A stretch of DNA of 64,000 bases from Atopobiaceae bacterium (GTDB taxonomy: Bacteria; Actinomycetota; Coriobacteriia; Coriobacteriales; Atopobiaceae): NCBI GenBank assembly GCA_022483015.1, contig JAKVOB010000001.1:2070902-2134901 (forward strand). Direction: 5' to 3'. Both the position numbers and the translations under genes were made by a program. Shown one piece after another: positions 54,885-58,540 of this stretch. Within the stretch, counting starts at the first letter, position 1. Each line of letters begins with the position of its first letter. The notes beneath the pieces are model-generated. The model did not search any database. It was not told the origin of the DNA and saw nothing but the letters and a program-made list of their open reading frames with translations.

Positions 54885-55015
54885 CGTACGCACGAGCGCC
54901 TGATATGACGACGGGCCGCCGGCATCGCTGCCGACGGCCCGTCTGCTTGGTTGTTCTCCCCGCCTTACAGGCCCTGCAGGGCCACCACGTCGAGGTCGCC
55001 CTCACGGGCGGTACG
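54885..55015. repeat. Direct repeat copy 1: displaced carB 3' end and terminator
   Basis: 131 bases that match 58410-58540 at all but seven positions. It contains the terminator hairpin (54911-54942) and the last codons of carB read on the minus strand (...[12 protein letters not shown], stop). It has no carB gene attached and starts two bases from the rloB-like stop. It marks the left boundary of an insertion at the carB 3' end. Confidence 0.85.
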
Positions 55016-55016
55016 A

Positions 55017-55691
55017 CTACCCGACGCGTACGTCAGGGAGGACCGCGTCGACCACGATGGGCATGTCCGTCCACGGGGCGAAGCCCGTCGTATCGAGCTG
55101 GTAGCGCAGGCGCTCATGTTCCTGCGTGCGATGGCTGGCGACGTTCTTGCACGCGGCATTGATATGCGGCTCCAGCTTATCCTTGACGATTTCCTTGTTG
55201 TTGCGCCCCGTGGTCAACCCGAGATTATGTGCCTGCCTTTCGCATTCCTTTGTACTCGTCCATGAGGATGAGCACGTGCGCTCATGATCGATAAGCCAGA
55301 CCTCGAAGCAGGGGTTCGAGATTATGAGCCTCATGCCCTCAGCCTTACAAGTCCTCTCGGCCGACCTCAACTTATCGCTGCTGAATTCGTCCACGTCCGT
55401 CAATACGAAGGTAGCACTGTAGCTCTCATAAGGCCCGCCATCCTTGCTGCACGACGCCTTGTCTTCGCTTCGCTTGGCCTTCATTGCCGCGATGGCAAGG
55501 TTCGCAGGATCCCTGGGACAGCACTTCCGCGTCACCGTGGCTGTGGTGCTGACATCATCAAGCATCTTAAGGTACTGTTTCTCCGTCACCTCCCCTCCCA
55601 TCACACAAAGCAACCGCTTCTTCCGTGGGTGCCCCGCTACGGAACGCCCTGCAGAAAGGGTCTTATGACCAGAGGATGCCTTCCTACTCAT
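55017..55691 (-). CDS. RloB/AbiLii-like protein
   Basis: 224 residues, RloB family (PF13707 type) by KKRLLCVMGGEVTEKQYL near residues 25-42, VLTDVDEF near 93-100 and IISNPCFEVWLIDH near 123-136, a Toprim-like layout. The usual CEGE-x-TE motif reads MGGEVTE here, so the first acidic residue is Gly. It overlaps the upstream ATPase gene by eight bases (ATGAGTAG) and has GGAGG upstream, so both are translated together. Known relatives act with RloA or AbiLi in phage abortive infection; the molecular activity is unknown. Confidence 0.87.
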   Translation of the reverse strand: MSRKASSGHKTLSAGRSVAGHPRKKRLLCVMGGEVTEKQYLKMLDDVSTTATVTRKCCPRDPANLAIAAMKAKRSEDKASCSKDGGPYESYSATFVLTDVDEFSSDKLRSAERTCKAEGMRLIISNPCFEVWLIDHERTCSSSWTSTKECERQAHNLGLTTGRNNKEIVKDKLEPHINAACKNVASHRTQEHERLRYQLDTTGFAPWTDMPIVVDAVLPDVRVG

Positions 55692-57138
55692 CCTCGGCCT
55701 CCTCTGTGGGCGCATCAGGCTCAGGCTTCTGGTTCAGGAGCTGGATGACATGTGCGAACCGCTCATGGAAGACTGGGTCAGGAATGGCACCGTAGATGCC
55801 ATGTAGGTAGTTTCTTCCATGGTTCTCGGCCTCGCGAGACTGGACAGAGGTCAAGGGGTACAGCGTCGCCGCTCCATAACAGTCCTTCTCGACAAACCAG
55901 ATCTGGTCACGTGCCAGCGGTCTCTCGTCATTTCCAGACTTGGTGATGAGCGAGGTGTCGTGGGTCGTGAAGATGAGCTGTGCCTCATTTGGATTGGTGG
56001 CAGGGTCCTTGAAGAGCTCCACCAGCTGCTCGACGAGAATCGGATGAAGGCTCGTATCGATCTCGTCCACTATGGCGACCTCACCATTATGGATCGCCCT
56101 GAGCGCCATGGAGAAGAATGCGAGCATGGCAAGGGTTCCATTAGACTCCTGAGACCGGTTGAAGACGGCCTTGCAATCCTTACCTTGGTGCGTGAACGCA
56201 AGCTTGAGGTTTGGAATCGCCTGGTCGGGATTCACGCGCGCGAGCTTCTTTGCCTTTTGCAGGCGCTCCTCCTTGTCCATGGTAGGATCCTGGACCATCA
56301 GGACGCTCGAGAGGTACTCCTCATAGGGGGAATCACCCGCCCCGGCCGTTTCCTGCGATGCATCATAGAGGTCGCTGAGCTGATCGCGCGCCTGAACGGC
56401 TCCTATTCCGAAACCAGAGCCAGCGATGAGTTGGGAGAGGGCCTCAGCGCCTCCCTTGTTCTTATAGAGATCCTCCGTGATTCCATAGAGCTCGTCCTCG
56501 TACAGGCTGGCGTCATAGAAGCCGACCTGATGCGCGAGGAACTCGAAGGCAGGCATGACGGTCTGGTTGTTCATCGCCGCCATGACGGAGAGCATGGGAG
56601 TACCAGGCTTGACCGCATCCTCATATACGCTACGTCGGCCACGGAACAAGTTCCCATATGAGTACCCATAGGTAGCACCCTTGCCCTTACGAGCCTCCCT
56701 TTCGAAGAGGCGCGACGAGCATACGCGGGCAGCACCGGGCTCAGAGAAGATTCGAAGGGACTCATAGGTGACGACCCCCTTGGGGCCGTCGAGGTCCAGC
56801 TCGTATCTATACCGTCGGCCATCTTGGCCCAGGAAGTCGACGAGGAATGAGGATATGGCCGACGAGCTGCTCTTATCAAGAGCAAATGGATGCAGCTCTT
56901 TTGAAAGGTCGAATCCATCGCTAAAACCTCTCGCGACATAATGTGAGACGAACGAGAGGGCCTCGATAAAGCTGCTCTTGCCAGAAGCGTTTCCACCATA
57001 TATGGCAGCCACGGTGGAGAGCTCGTTATGCGGCCAGTCGTATGGCTCGTTCTTCTGGGCGACACCGGTCCGTTCGAGTGAGAACTGTTGAGGGTCCTTG
57101 AAAGACTTGAAATTGGAGAAGCTGAAGTTGATGAGCAT
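55684..57138 (-). CDS. RloA/AbiLi-like AAA15-family ATPase
   Basis: 484 residues. N-terminal MLINFSFSNFKSFKD, Walker A YGGNASGKSS near 46-55, then a long coiled/insert region, SQESNGTLAM signature near 333, Walker B AIVDEIDTSLHP near 360, and IFTTHDTSLI near 390. This is the ATPase half of the two-gene RloA-RloB/AbiL-type module. The ATG at 57138 has GAGGAGG upstream and a good promoter precedes it. The neighbouring rloB-like start is inside its last codons. Nucleic-acid sensing by the ATPase is the common hypothesis for the family. Confidence 0.9.
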   Translation of the reverse strand: MLINFSFSNFKSFKDPQQFSLERTGVAQKNEPYDWPHNELSTVAAIYGGNASGKSSFIEALSFVSHYVARGFSDGFDLSKELHPFALDKSSSSAISSFLVDFLGQDGRRYRYELDLDGPKGVVTYESLRIFSEPGAARVCSSRLFEREARKGKGATYGYSYGNLFRGRRSVYEDAVKPGTPMLSVMAAMNNQTVMPAFEFLAHQVGFYDASLYEDELYGITEDLYKNKGGAEALSQLIAGSGFGIGAVQARDQLSDLYDASQETAGAGDSPYEEYLSSVLMVQDPTMDKEERLQKAKKLARVNPDQAIPNLKLAFTHQGKDCKAVFNRSQESNGTLAMLAFFSMALRAIHNGEVAIVDEIDTSLHPILVEQLVELFKDPATNPNEAQLIFTTHDTSLITKSGNDERPLARDQIWFVEKDCYGAATLYPLTSVQSREAENHGRNYLHGIYGAIPDPVFHERFAHVIQLLNQKPEPDAPTEEAEDE

Positions 57139-57195
57139 ATGTCCTCCTCGCGCCATTGGACCTCTAGGCGACTCAAGCTTTGAAAGAATGCGACA

Positions 57196-57224: not shown

Positions 57225-57254
57225 CTTTTTGCTAGTTTTCGCCATATTTCGTTT

Positions 57255-57260
57255 TATAAG
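57255..57260 (+). promoter_or_regulatory. -10 box of the HEPN-motif gene (possible leaderless mRNA)
   Basis: TATAAG ends six bases before the ATG at 57267, and no ribosome-binding site is visible, so transcription would start at the ATG. The nearest -35-like TTGCTA (57229-57234) has a long 20-base spacer. Confidence 0.4.
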
Positions 57261-57266
57261 TAACGT

Positions 57267-58433
57267 ATGTCCCATTCATCGTTTATGATTGCCCCGTCGA
57301 CCGCCGCCGACGCCGAACTTCATGCGTCACCTGGCGGGCTTCAACGAAGACGAGCATTTCCCTTGCTCAAGTTATTGGGGTACTTGGTGAGGAATGGTGA
57401 GGCACGCGAGACTGCCCGGGGCATCAGCAATGACCTCGATGATCTCATTTCACTAGTTGACGGCTTCTATCGCTTGCTCGGACCAAGGAACTGGGTCTTC
57501 TCAAATGCACTGAATCTCGAACGTATGAGGAAAGTCGTCGCCATGCCCACTCCCGAAGAGGCGGAGCGAGAGCTCGCCGCATACCTCGGCGAGGACGGAA
57601 CCCTCCTGCAGATGGTCTCTTGGCTGAACAGGTTTCCAGACATGCGCCCTCGACTCCCACTTCTCAAGAAAGCCGTTCGGGACTACCTCGAGGGACGTTA
57701 CTACAGCTCGGTGCTTGTGACGGTCTCCACGATGGACGGCTTCGTCAACGATGCCTTTAGGTCTGAGGAAAGAAGAGGTCTGCATGCAAGGCGTCCAGAG
57801 GAGCTACACGTCGATGACTGCGTTGCAACGGTCTGGGACGGCCTGCCCTCAGCCCAGGAGGCATTCACAAAGTCGTTCTATGCAAGAGTGGACACGCCTG
57901 TTTATGAGGTCTACCGCAATGGAATCATGCATGGGATGATTACCGACTATGACAATGTCATAGTCGCCTCTAAGGCCTGGTGCATGCTCTTTGCCATCGG
58001 AGACTGGGTCGATGCCAAGACCATCAAACAAGAGAATAGTAAGAAGGAACCTCGGACTCCGACTCAAGTGCTCAAGGGCCTCTCGGAAGCACGGAACCGC
58101 AAAGCTGACACCGACAAGAAGCTCGCTGCCTGGAAGAAACACCGTGTGAAACTCGAAAGCCCAATTGGACCTGACATCGAGCTTATCAAGGACTGCAACG
58201 CCTTCTTTGCAGCCTGGCAATCGAAAAACTACGGATCGCTCGGCTCCTATCTCACGAATTCCGATTCCAGAACACCTGGCAAGCAGGCAGGTGAGGCAAA
58301 GAACTGCTATCACCTCCATCCGATTGAGAGATTCGAGGTCGAGGAGATTGACAGGCAGGCCCCTGAGACATCTGGTAATCGATGTCGGCACAGGTCGAAC
58401 TGGCTCACGCGTACGCACGGACACCTGATATGA
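57267..58433 (+). CDS. HEPN-motif protein divergent from rloA-rloB
   Basis: 388 residues, no family firmly recognised. Residues about 45-130 are helical and charged. The segment VYEVYRNGIMHGM near 214-226 contains R-N-x3-H (RX4H), the active-site motif of HEPN ribonucleases, followed by KAWCMLFAIGDWVD, a pattern seen in HEPN/Apea-like domains. The last 200 residues are basic, with low-complexity turns. The final eight codons lie inside the 131-base repeat, so the natural C-terminus may have been altered. It shares a 128-base AT-rich divergent promoter region with rloA. An RNase effector is an inference. Confidence 0.7.
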   Translation: MSHSSFMIAPSTAADAELHASPGGLQRRRAFPLLKLLGYLVRNGEARETARGISNDLDDLISLVDGFYRLLGPRNWVFSNALNLERMRKVVAMPTPEEAERELAAYLGEDGTLLQMVSWLNRFPDMRPRLPLLKKAVRDYLEGRYYSSVLVTVSTMDGFVNDAFRSEERRGLHARRPEELHVDDCVATVWDGLPSAQEAFTKSFYARVDTPVYEVYRNGIMHGMITDYDNVIVASKAWCMLFAIGDWVDAKTIKQENSKKEPRTPTQVLKGLSEARNRKADTDKKLAAWKKHRVKLESPIGPDIELIKDCNAFFAAWQSKNYGSLGSYLTNSDSRTPGKQAGEAKNCYHLHPIERFEVEEIDRQAPETSGNRCRHRSNWLTRTHGHLI

Positions 58434-58540
58434 CGACGGGCCGCCGGCATCGCTGCCGACGGCCCGTCCATTTGGTTGTTCTCCCCGCCTTACAGGTCCT
58501 GCAGGGCCACCACGTCGAGGTCGCCCTCACGGGCGGTACG
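58410..58540. repeat. Direct repeat copy 2: carB 3' end and terminator
   Basis: 131 bases in the same orientation as copy 1 (54885-55015), with seven mismatches. It includes the real carB stop region and the hairpin 58436-58467. It marks the right boundary of the insertion. Confidence 0.85.
58436..58467 (-). terminator. carAB terminator
   Basis: ACGGGCCGCCGGCA and TGCCGACGGCCCGT pair with one C/A mismatch and a TCGC loop, 22 bases after the carB stop. The same hairpin is duplicated at 54911-54942. Confidence 0.8.

What the first reader, a model, noticed from the sequence alone, without database searches (positions are those of the whole stretch)
54885..58540. Defence-type island inserted at the 3' end of carB, bounded by 131-bp direct repeats
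54885-55015 and 58410-58540 are direct copies (seven differences in 131 bases) of the end of carB plus its terminator hairpin. Only the right copy belongs to an intact carB. Between them sit exactly three genes: rloB-like, rloA-like and a divergent HEPN-motif gene. Integration that recreates the 3' end of the host gene is typical of site-specific elements, but no integrase is present, so the island may be moved in trans or by homologous exchange between the repeats. carB as an attachment locus for defence cargo appears unusual to me.
Basis: partly seen in the sequence, partly recalled or inferred. Interest (0 to 1): 0.8.

Follow-up and report, generated by a model that had tools for sequence, protein, structure and literature searches.

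The report
Defence mini-island at the carB end
A small block of probable anti-virus genes sits just behind a bacterium's carB gene, between two near-identical 131-base copies of that gene's tail; it looks like a small mobile unit that carries no visible enzyme of its own for moving, and relatives of one of its genes sit in similar small units elsewhere.

Summary
54885-55015 and 58410-58540 are direct copies (7 differences in 131, all transitions) of the last 51 nt of carB plus its terminator; only the right copy ends an intact carB. Between them lie 3,394 bp with an intact AbiL-type operon (RloA ATPase, RloB) and a divergent HEPN-NTF2-like gene. Two corrections: the HEPN gene lacks about 50 conserved C-terminal residues, its similarity ending 48 bp before the right repeat; and defence content continues left of the left repeat (a second RloA with a remnant of its RloB). 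carB is not a recurrent site in this family: 0 of 72 other genomes repeat the carB end downstream, and none has a tyrosine-integrase-like ORF there. But 3 of 36 loci with relatives of the HEPN gene lie between a tRNA gene and a copy of its 3' end (0 of 91 comparison loci), and in two of these (about 4 kb long) no integrase was detected. The block therefore reads best as an integrase-less integrative unit at a gene 3' end; recombinase-free insertion with long target duplication and conspecific recombination remain open. Other strains of the species could not be examined. By-product: an unnamed, widespread HEPN-NTF2-like family.

The parts
58490..61696 (-). carB, intact, 1068 aa
   Evidence: Pfam CPSase domains; 89.6% aa identity to the G001 carB
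58410..58540 (-). right repeat copy: last 51 nt of carB, terminator hairpin (about 58435-58468) and short tail
54885..55015 (-). left repeat copy, not attached to a carB; hairpin about 54910-54943
55016..58409 (.). inserted block, 3394 bp, G+C 0.51-0.58 against 0.66-0.69 in carB (500-bp windows)
55017..55715 (-). RloB/AbiLii-like gene, full length, conserved Toprim-type residues; stop codon 1 nt from the left repeat
   Evidence: Pfam RloB 4.9e-22, PADLOC AbiLii 2.6e-14, alignment A4
55684..57156 (-). RloA/AbiLi-like AAA ATPase, overlaps rloB by 32 nt
   Evidence: Pfam AAA_21 4.1e-30, PADLOC AbiLi 1.3e-76; RloA-RloB operons elsewhere
57267..58433 (+). HEPN-motif (RNGIMH) gene with a C-terminal NTF2-like domain, 3'-truncated; family similarity ends near 58361
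58362..58409 (.). 48 bp of unassigned sequence between the end of HEPN similarity and the right repeat
53451..54803 (-). second RloA/AbiLi-like ATPase (ATPase2), outside the repeats
   Evidence: PADLOC AbiLi 2.9e-67; 25% identical to RloA; 14 homologues in the family at E up to 1e-40
53361..53447 (-). probable C-terminal remnant of the RloB partner of ATPase2
   Evidence: tblastn, residues 173-201 of 203 of a relative's RloB, 41%, E 0.046 (weak, but directly behind ATPase2 where the partner is expected)
53229..53290 (.). two 18-nt palindromes 39 nt apart that pair into one long hairpin; no other match in the genome with up to 2 mismatches

Best explanation
A small integrative unit without its own integrase. 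In this lineage a 3.4-kb block with an AbiL-type abortive-infection operon (RloA ATPase + RloB Toprim-related protein) and a HEPN-NTF2-like gene entered at the 3' end of carB by site-specific-type integration that recreated the end of the gene and its terminator, so both repeat copies are the two junctions. The recombinase was either lost by deletion (the HEPN gene beside one junction is itself cut) or acted from elsewhere in the cell. Shown: repeats, gene content, truncation, no tyrosine integrase in the window and no PF07508 recombinase in the genome, and relatives of the HEPN gene in units bounded by tRNA 3'-end copies, two of them without a detected integrase. Inferred: that the carB block arose in the same way, and that RloA/RloB stop phage by ATPase-gated nuclease action.
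For: The repeat is a gene 3' end plus terminator with only one copy in an intact gene. Of 36 loci with HEPN-NTF2 genes, 3 (L169, L188, L190) lie between a tRNA gene and a partial copy of its 3' end, against 0 of 91 comparison loci (8 RloAB, 20 own-genome stretches, 63 carB loci). L188 (about 4.3 kb) and L190 (about 3.9 kb, 58-nt perfect repeat) have no integrase-like ORF by the local profile; L169 has an integrase, a Hachiman-type HamA gene with a helicase gene, and a 116-nt repeat, 90% identical, made of the tRNA-Pro end and what follows, much like the 131 nt, 95% here. RloAB relatives lie beside an integrase in two genomes, and this genome has a third AbiL pair near integrases.
Against: No integrase in the block; 0 of 72 relatives show a carB-end repeat or an integrase-like ORF downstream. 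Carrier and target differ (carB, not tRNA). The 3-of-36 result came from following up a row seen, was not pre-planned, and the comparison is small. The integrase-bearing units seen (L169, L232) keep their integrase beside a repeat.
Confidence: 0.47

Rival explanations
1. Insertion with long target duplication: the block was joined in without a dedicated recombinase and about 131 bp of target were duplicated, as described for restriction-modification genes.
For: [quoted passage not shown] no integrase in the block; the HEPN gene is cut near one junction, which fits illegitimate joining.
Against: Cargo is not an RM system; the repeat is just the functional gene end plus terminator; HEPN relatives in tRNA-end units point to site-specific integration.
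Confidence: 0.22
2. Homologous recombination with conspecific DNA: a circular or tandem donor segment carrying the carB 3' end integrated by a single crossover, so the two copies are alleles of two strains.
For: Both copies share a terminator that does not align with the sister species; the seven differences are clustered (P about 7e-4), as between alleles.
Against: It does not explain how the donor came to have carB sequence beside the block; no strain genomes to test.
Confidence: 0.2
3. Slow local rearrangement in a plastic region, without one insertion event.
For: About 29 kb of the window lies between shared genes and carB compared with G001; ATPase2 has lost its partner and HEPN its 3' end.
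Against: The repeats are ungapped and exactly bound one block of lower G+C.
Confidence: 0.07
4. Assembly or sequence artefact.
For: One assembly, no reads available.
Against: The copies differ at 7 sites and their flanks are unrelated.
Confidence: 0.03

Closest known systems
Att-flanked elements without integrase (cis-mobilisable elements, CIMEs; recalled, from no call)
   Same: Cargo between two copies of a gene 3' end, no recombinase inside
   Different: No related integrase-bearing element at carB found; excision not tested
tRNA-end units with HEPN-NTF2 genes found here (L169, L188, L190)
   Same: Relative of the HEPN gene between a gene and a copy of its 3' end; two of the three small and without a detected integrase
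   Different: Target is a tRNA gene, cargo otherwise different
Insertion with long target duplication of restriction-modification genes (Nobusato et al. 2000, Furuta et al. 2010; known here only as cited in other papers)
   Same: Host-conflict genes between direct repeats in the order of 100 bp, no recombinase (passages: PMC3874152, PMC1643837)
   Different: Not RM genes; repeat is a gene end; empty site of the same species not seen
AbiL / RloA-RloB
   Same: Both genes, order, overlap, conserved residues
   Different: Beside a HEPN gene that is not part of the operon in the other loci read; protection untested
PARIS (AriA-AriB)
   Same: Same two-gene ATPase + Toprim layout; PADLOC AriA hits are weaker than AbiLi
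   Different: Partner is RloB (PF13707); AriB not among the PADLOC hits of RloB
AbiV-type HEPN proteins
   Same: Model residues 121-249 align to AbiV 9bj7 (Z 5.8, 4.2 A, 113 residues)
   Different: The RX4H motif is complete, whereas AbiV typically lacks the H (PMC3710099 passage); NTF2-like C-terminal domain added

Membership tests
Site-specific integrative element | Gene 3' end recreated as direct repeats at the two junctions | tested here: met
Site-specific integrative element | Integrase inside the element | tested here: not met
   No integrase domain in the block's three ORFs; nearest PF00589 match about 154 kb away; no PF07508 match in the genome. So not filed as a complete element, only as 'works like', or as an integrase-less derivative
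Site-specific integrative element | Same attachment site used in relatives | tested here: not met
   0 of 72 family loci; strains of this species not testable
Integrase-less att-flanked element (CIME type, recalled) | Excises or moves with a recombinase supplied from elsewhere | not testable with these tools
   needs excision PCR or reads
Insertion with long target duplication | Direct repeats in the order of 100 bp, one in the intact target | tested here: met
   131 bp
Insertion with long target duplication | Close relative with an empty, single-copy site | tested here: inconclusive
   G001 is single-copy but another species; its terminator does not align
Insertion with long target duplication | Cargo is a restriction-modification system (as in published cases) | tested here: not met
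   AbiL-type plus HEPN gene
AbiL (RloA/RloB) | RloA-type AAA ATPase next to RloB domain protein | tested here: met
AbiL (RloA/RloB) | Protection against phage | not testable with these tools
   needs an infection assay
HEPN superfamily | RX4-6H motif conserved | tested here: met
   R217 and H222 invariant in 24 of 24 aligned members
HEPN superfamily | HEPN helical fold | tested here: inconclusive
   AbiV chain at Z 5.8 only; helical bundles match easily
HEPN superfamily | RNase activity | not testable with these tools
   needs biochemistry; the window copy is truncated

The most novel reading that the evidence does not exclude
HEPN-NTF2 genes mark a class of integrase-less defence mini-islands of about 3.5-4.5 kb, spread over distant phyla, that enter at gene 3' ends (tRNA-Leu, tRNA-Ser, here carB) by borrowing recombinases of other elements, as defence satellites of integrases.
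Probability: 0.17. Interest if true: 0.75.

Novelty: new member of a known kind. Interest (0 to 1): 0.45.

Why it matters
How defence genes without a recombinase of their own get into chromosomes is an open question. This locus is a compact, testable case with precise junctions in species-specific sequence, and it led to similar small units around relatives of one of its genes. It also brings out an uncharacterised HEPN-NTF2-like family whose members sit in bacteria and archaea and on plasmids, and shows that carB is not a general attachment site in this family.

Tried and rejected
Chance or dispersed repeat: rejected. carB as a conserved attachment site in the family: rejected for the one-genome-per-species set. 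A first integrase profile used wrongly picked ORFs for three of seven loci; redone with correct strands and a positive control. Phage vector: no nucleotide match of the block in 50,697 phage records, no HEPN match, one RloA match at 27%; viral-contig scans gave no relative of HEPN, RloA or ATPase2 and no copy of the carB end. Plasmids: 53300-58640 gave only a 2% match in two records; HEPN relatives on 5 plasmid records, 34-37% identical. AbiEi as a fixed HEPN partner: seen upstream of the gene in G113 (L052); neighbours in the other loci read vary, part of that listing being cut. Rfam: no hit in 52500-62000. Sequence search of solved structures gave no convincing relative of HEPN, RloB or RloA; Foldseek gave no match at E 0.001 or better for either HEPN model, the NTF2-like reading rests on VIA-align. 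A 9-mer shared near both inner ends of the block (chance about 0.004) was found after looking and is not used. No family model was found for HEPN-NTF2: 10 members against Pfam (only hits below cut-off), the window copy and 20 others against NCBIfam and PADLOC, two against PHROGs. Alignment A3 used 23 of 36 homologous loci; short, contig-cut or unread ones were left out. In one search direct repeats were printed for 8 of 25 loci (L163, L164, L165, L166, L169, L176, L178, L190); of these L169 and L190 are tRNA ends; the 320-nt repeat of L166 is unexplained and the other five were not followed up. L171 (two whole tRNA-Arg genes on either side of HEPN, integrase-like ORF beside one) was not counted.
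Full report
WHAT IS THERE. The 131-nt direct repeat is real and exact. The copies differ at seven sites, all transitions, clustered more than random placement predicts (P about 7e-4 by 200,000 draws with my own neighbour measure). Flanks beyond the copies are unrelated (37.5% and 25% identity over 40 nt). A genome search found two full copies and two weak hits inside other genes. The right copy is the end of carB (58490-61696); 51 nt are coding, then a 15-bp hairpin; both copies fold better than all 200 shuffles. 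In the 20 relatives printed, all have LQD near the carB C-terminus (16 as ALQDL); the right copy keeps the D, the left copy has G, so the left copy is the one free to drift, or it comes from another allele.

THE BLOCK. Between the copies lie 3,394 bp with G+C of about 0.51-0.58, against 0.66-0.69 in carB. RloB (232 aa, Pfam E 4.9e-22) and RloA (490 aa, AAA_21 E 4.1e-30; PADLOC AbiLi 1.3e-76) overlap by 32 nt. RloB is full length by comparison with relatives; its stop codon lies 1 nt from the left repeat; columns G41, T44, E45, D107, D109 are among those invariant in the ten aligned RloBs. RloA-RloB pairs occur in other family genomes without the HEPN gene beside them. In G072 the pair lies between a Pfam-confirmed tyrosine integrase and a gene with a sub-threshold terminase match; G023 has the same order, its integrase found by my profile. 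A paper passage relates the RloB domain to OLD Toprim domains and to AbiLii (PMC10440598, passages).

THE HEPN GENE IS DAMAGED. 57267-58433 matches no family model. One scan of GTDB contigs found 35 relatives, 5 plasmid records hold one, and 5 of 140 family genomes including this one match. In 24 aligned members R217 and H222 of the RX4H motif are invariant. The predicted fold is helical, then an NTF2-like domain: the model of a full-length relative (L166) aligns to a ketosteroid-isomerase-like chain over 109 residues (Z 10.3, 3.7 A), while Foldseek alone gave nothing at E 0.001. All 23 homologues aligned have at least 53 residues beyond position 365; the window copy has 23, and identity to four Coriobacteriia homologues falls from 68-69% (residues 40-300) and 54-55% (301-365) to 13-22% (366-388). 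The strands at 362-371, 374-386 and 398-401 of the L166 model fall in the part that the window copy lacks. Similarity ends 48 bp before the right repeat.

DEFENCE CONTENT GOES ON TO THE LEFT. ATPase2 (53451-54803) is a second RloA-like protein, 25% identical to RloA. Of its 14 homologues in the family, five have a RloB-like gene directly behind by blastp (L208, L209, L210, L213, L215), L216 has one by tblastn, L212 a partial one; L211 and L214 keep only the first 19 residues; L217-L219 gave no hit, L220 and L221 were not tested with tblastn. In the window only a weak C-terminal remnant follows ATPase2 (E 0.046, at the expected place). The repeats thus lie inside a stretch with two AbiL modules, one intact and one broken.

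IS carB AN ATTACHMENT SITE? carB ends were found in 121 of 140 family genomes including this one. I fetched the downstream DNA of 80 of the 120 others; 72 had at least 3 kb, 62 of them about 14-15 kb or more. None of the 72 had a second copy of at least 40 nt with at least 20 nt of carB coding sequence; the window was recovered as control. None had a tyrosine-integrase-like ORF; the same profile found two prophage integrases given as control. None had a relative of the four window defence proteins at E 1e-8. The set has one genome per species and only one other species of the genus (G001), which has one carB end and no match to HEPN (E 1e-3), RloA (1e-20) or ATPase2 (1e-40); its terminator does not align, so it is an imperfect empty site. 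Compared with G001, about 29 kb (29-58 kb) lies between shared genes and carB.

PARALLELS. While checking the draft I followed up flanking repeats printed. L190 (a Thermoleophilia MAG) has its HEPN-NTF2 gene between an intact tRNA-Leu gene (7537-7625) and a perfect 58-nt copy of its end (11416-11473). L169 (Kocuria marina) has it between tRNA-Pro and a 116-nt, 90% copy, with a tyrosine integrase and a Hachiman-type HamA gene with a helicase gene. A test of all 36 HEPN loci (20 tRNAs) added L188 (Thermoleophilia MAG, tRNA-Ser). So 3 of 36 loci have a partial tRNA 3'-end copy of at least 35 nt, and in each it spans the HEPN gene; comparison loci gave 0 of 8 (RloAB, 1 tRNA), 0 of 20 (own-genome stretches, 7 tRNAs) and 0 of 63 (carB loci, 39 tRNAs). 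No integrase-like ORF was found by the profile in L188 and L190; two other ORFs between the L190 repeats have no Pfam family; those of L188 were not scanned. By contrast direct repeats of any kind (at least 50 nt, 85%) spanned the middle of 0 of 20 and 2 of 63 comparison loci, and 3 of the 17 HEPN loci. The numbers are small and the test was not planned beforehand.

CONTROLS IN THE SAME GENOME. In 20 sampled stretches direct repeats of at least 60 nt, 88% identity and more than 1 kb apart were found in four: two tandem-repeat regions, an IS-like pair (rve domains, L241) and a 69-nt pair in L232. The L232 pair reads as a tRNA 3' half (my reading; ARAGORN finds no tRNA there) and flanks a Schlafen-like gene, with an integrase next to the first copy. 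Own-genome searches found 8 PF00589 matches, the nearest about 154 kb from the block, and no PF07508 match.

MECHANISM. Most likely (0.47) the block is an integrase-less integrative unit at a gene 3' end, its recombinase lost or supplied in trans. Insertion with long target duplication (0.22) is the main rival: RM systems can insert with long and variable target duplications in the order of 100 bp (PMC3874152, passage); the pattern was found by comparing two H. pylori strains and is frequently associated with RM genes (PMC1643837, passage); a direct-repeat-flanked RM cluster was discussed in these terms (PMC4978471, passage). The original papers were not seen (one not held; the other not looked up). 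Conspecific recombination (0.20) fits the clustered differences. Function is inferred from family knowledge: RloA ATPase gates, RloB acts as nuclease, the infected cell stops. The HEPN gene is probably impaired or works without a complete NTF2-like domain.

NOVELTY. AbiL is known; elements bounded by gene-end repeats without an integrase are known (CIMEs, recalled). The carB case and the HEPN-NTF2 units are new members. I do not claim that carB is unpublished as an attachment gene: two searches showed no such paper in their listings by title and abstract start, no more. One search for HEPN with NTF2-like listed no paper with both terms among the 12 shown of 59.

Noticed in passing
L164-L198, L052, window 57267-58433: Unnamed protein family: HEPN RX4H motif plus C-terminal NTF2-like domain, 35 loci in one scan (mostly Actinomycetota, also Cyanobacteria, Chloroflexi and archaeal records), also on Rhodococcus, Prescottella and Streptomyces plasmids; no family model matches.
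   Followed up: partly
L190 7537-11473, L188 9705-13994, L169 7214-16836: HEPN-NTF2 genes between a tRNA gene and a copy of its 3' end; no integrase detected in L188 and L190, integrase and Hachiman-type HamA in L169.
   Followed up: partly
G000:C1 about 1,960,000-1,972,000 (L241): A third AbiL pair (RloB 1701-2375, RloA 2377-3624 in the locus) with AbiEi-type and AbiH genes, rve-type IS copies and tyrosine integrases nearby.
   Followed up: partly
G000:C1 about 973,300-977,000 (L232 13279-17006): Small integrase element with a Schlafen-AlbA_2 gene between 69-nt repeats that read as a tRNA 3' half.
   Followed up: partly
window 53229-53290: Two 18-nt palindromes 39 nt apart forming one long hairpin (z -3.6 for 53190-53330) between convergent gene ends; no other match in the genome.
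   Followed up: partly
window 51022-53188: GGDEF-EAL protein split over two frames (EAL profile 11-93 in one ORF, 107-236 in the next): frameshift or sequence error.
   Followed up: no
L211, L214: ATPase2 homologues whose RloB partner also seems lost after the first 19 residues, as if the partner is repeatedly deleted.
   Followed up: no
L166 7438-7757 and 12510-12829: A 320-nt repeat (86%) on both sides of a Schlafen-type and a HEPN-NTF2 gene; nature unknown, no tRNA in the locus.
   Followed up: partly
L118, L107, L103 (carB loci of genus g4): 30-40 nt stretches just behind carB recur within 15 kb downstream, probably repeated terminator sequences.
   Followed up: no
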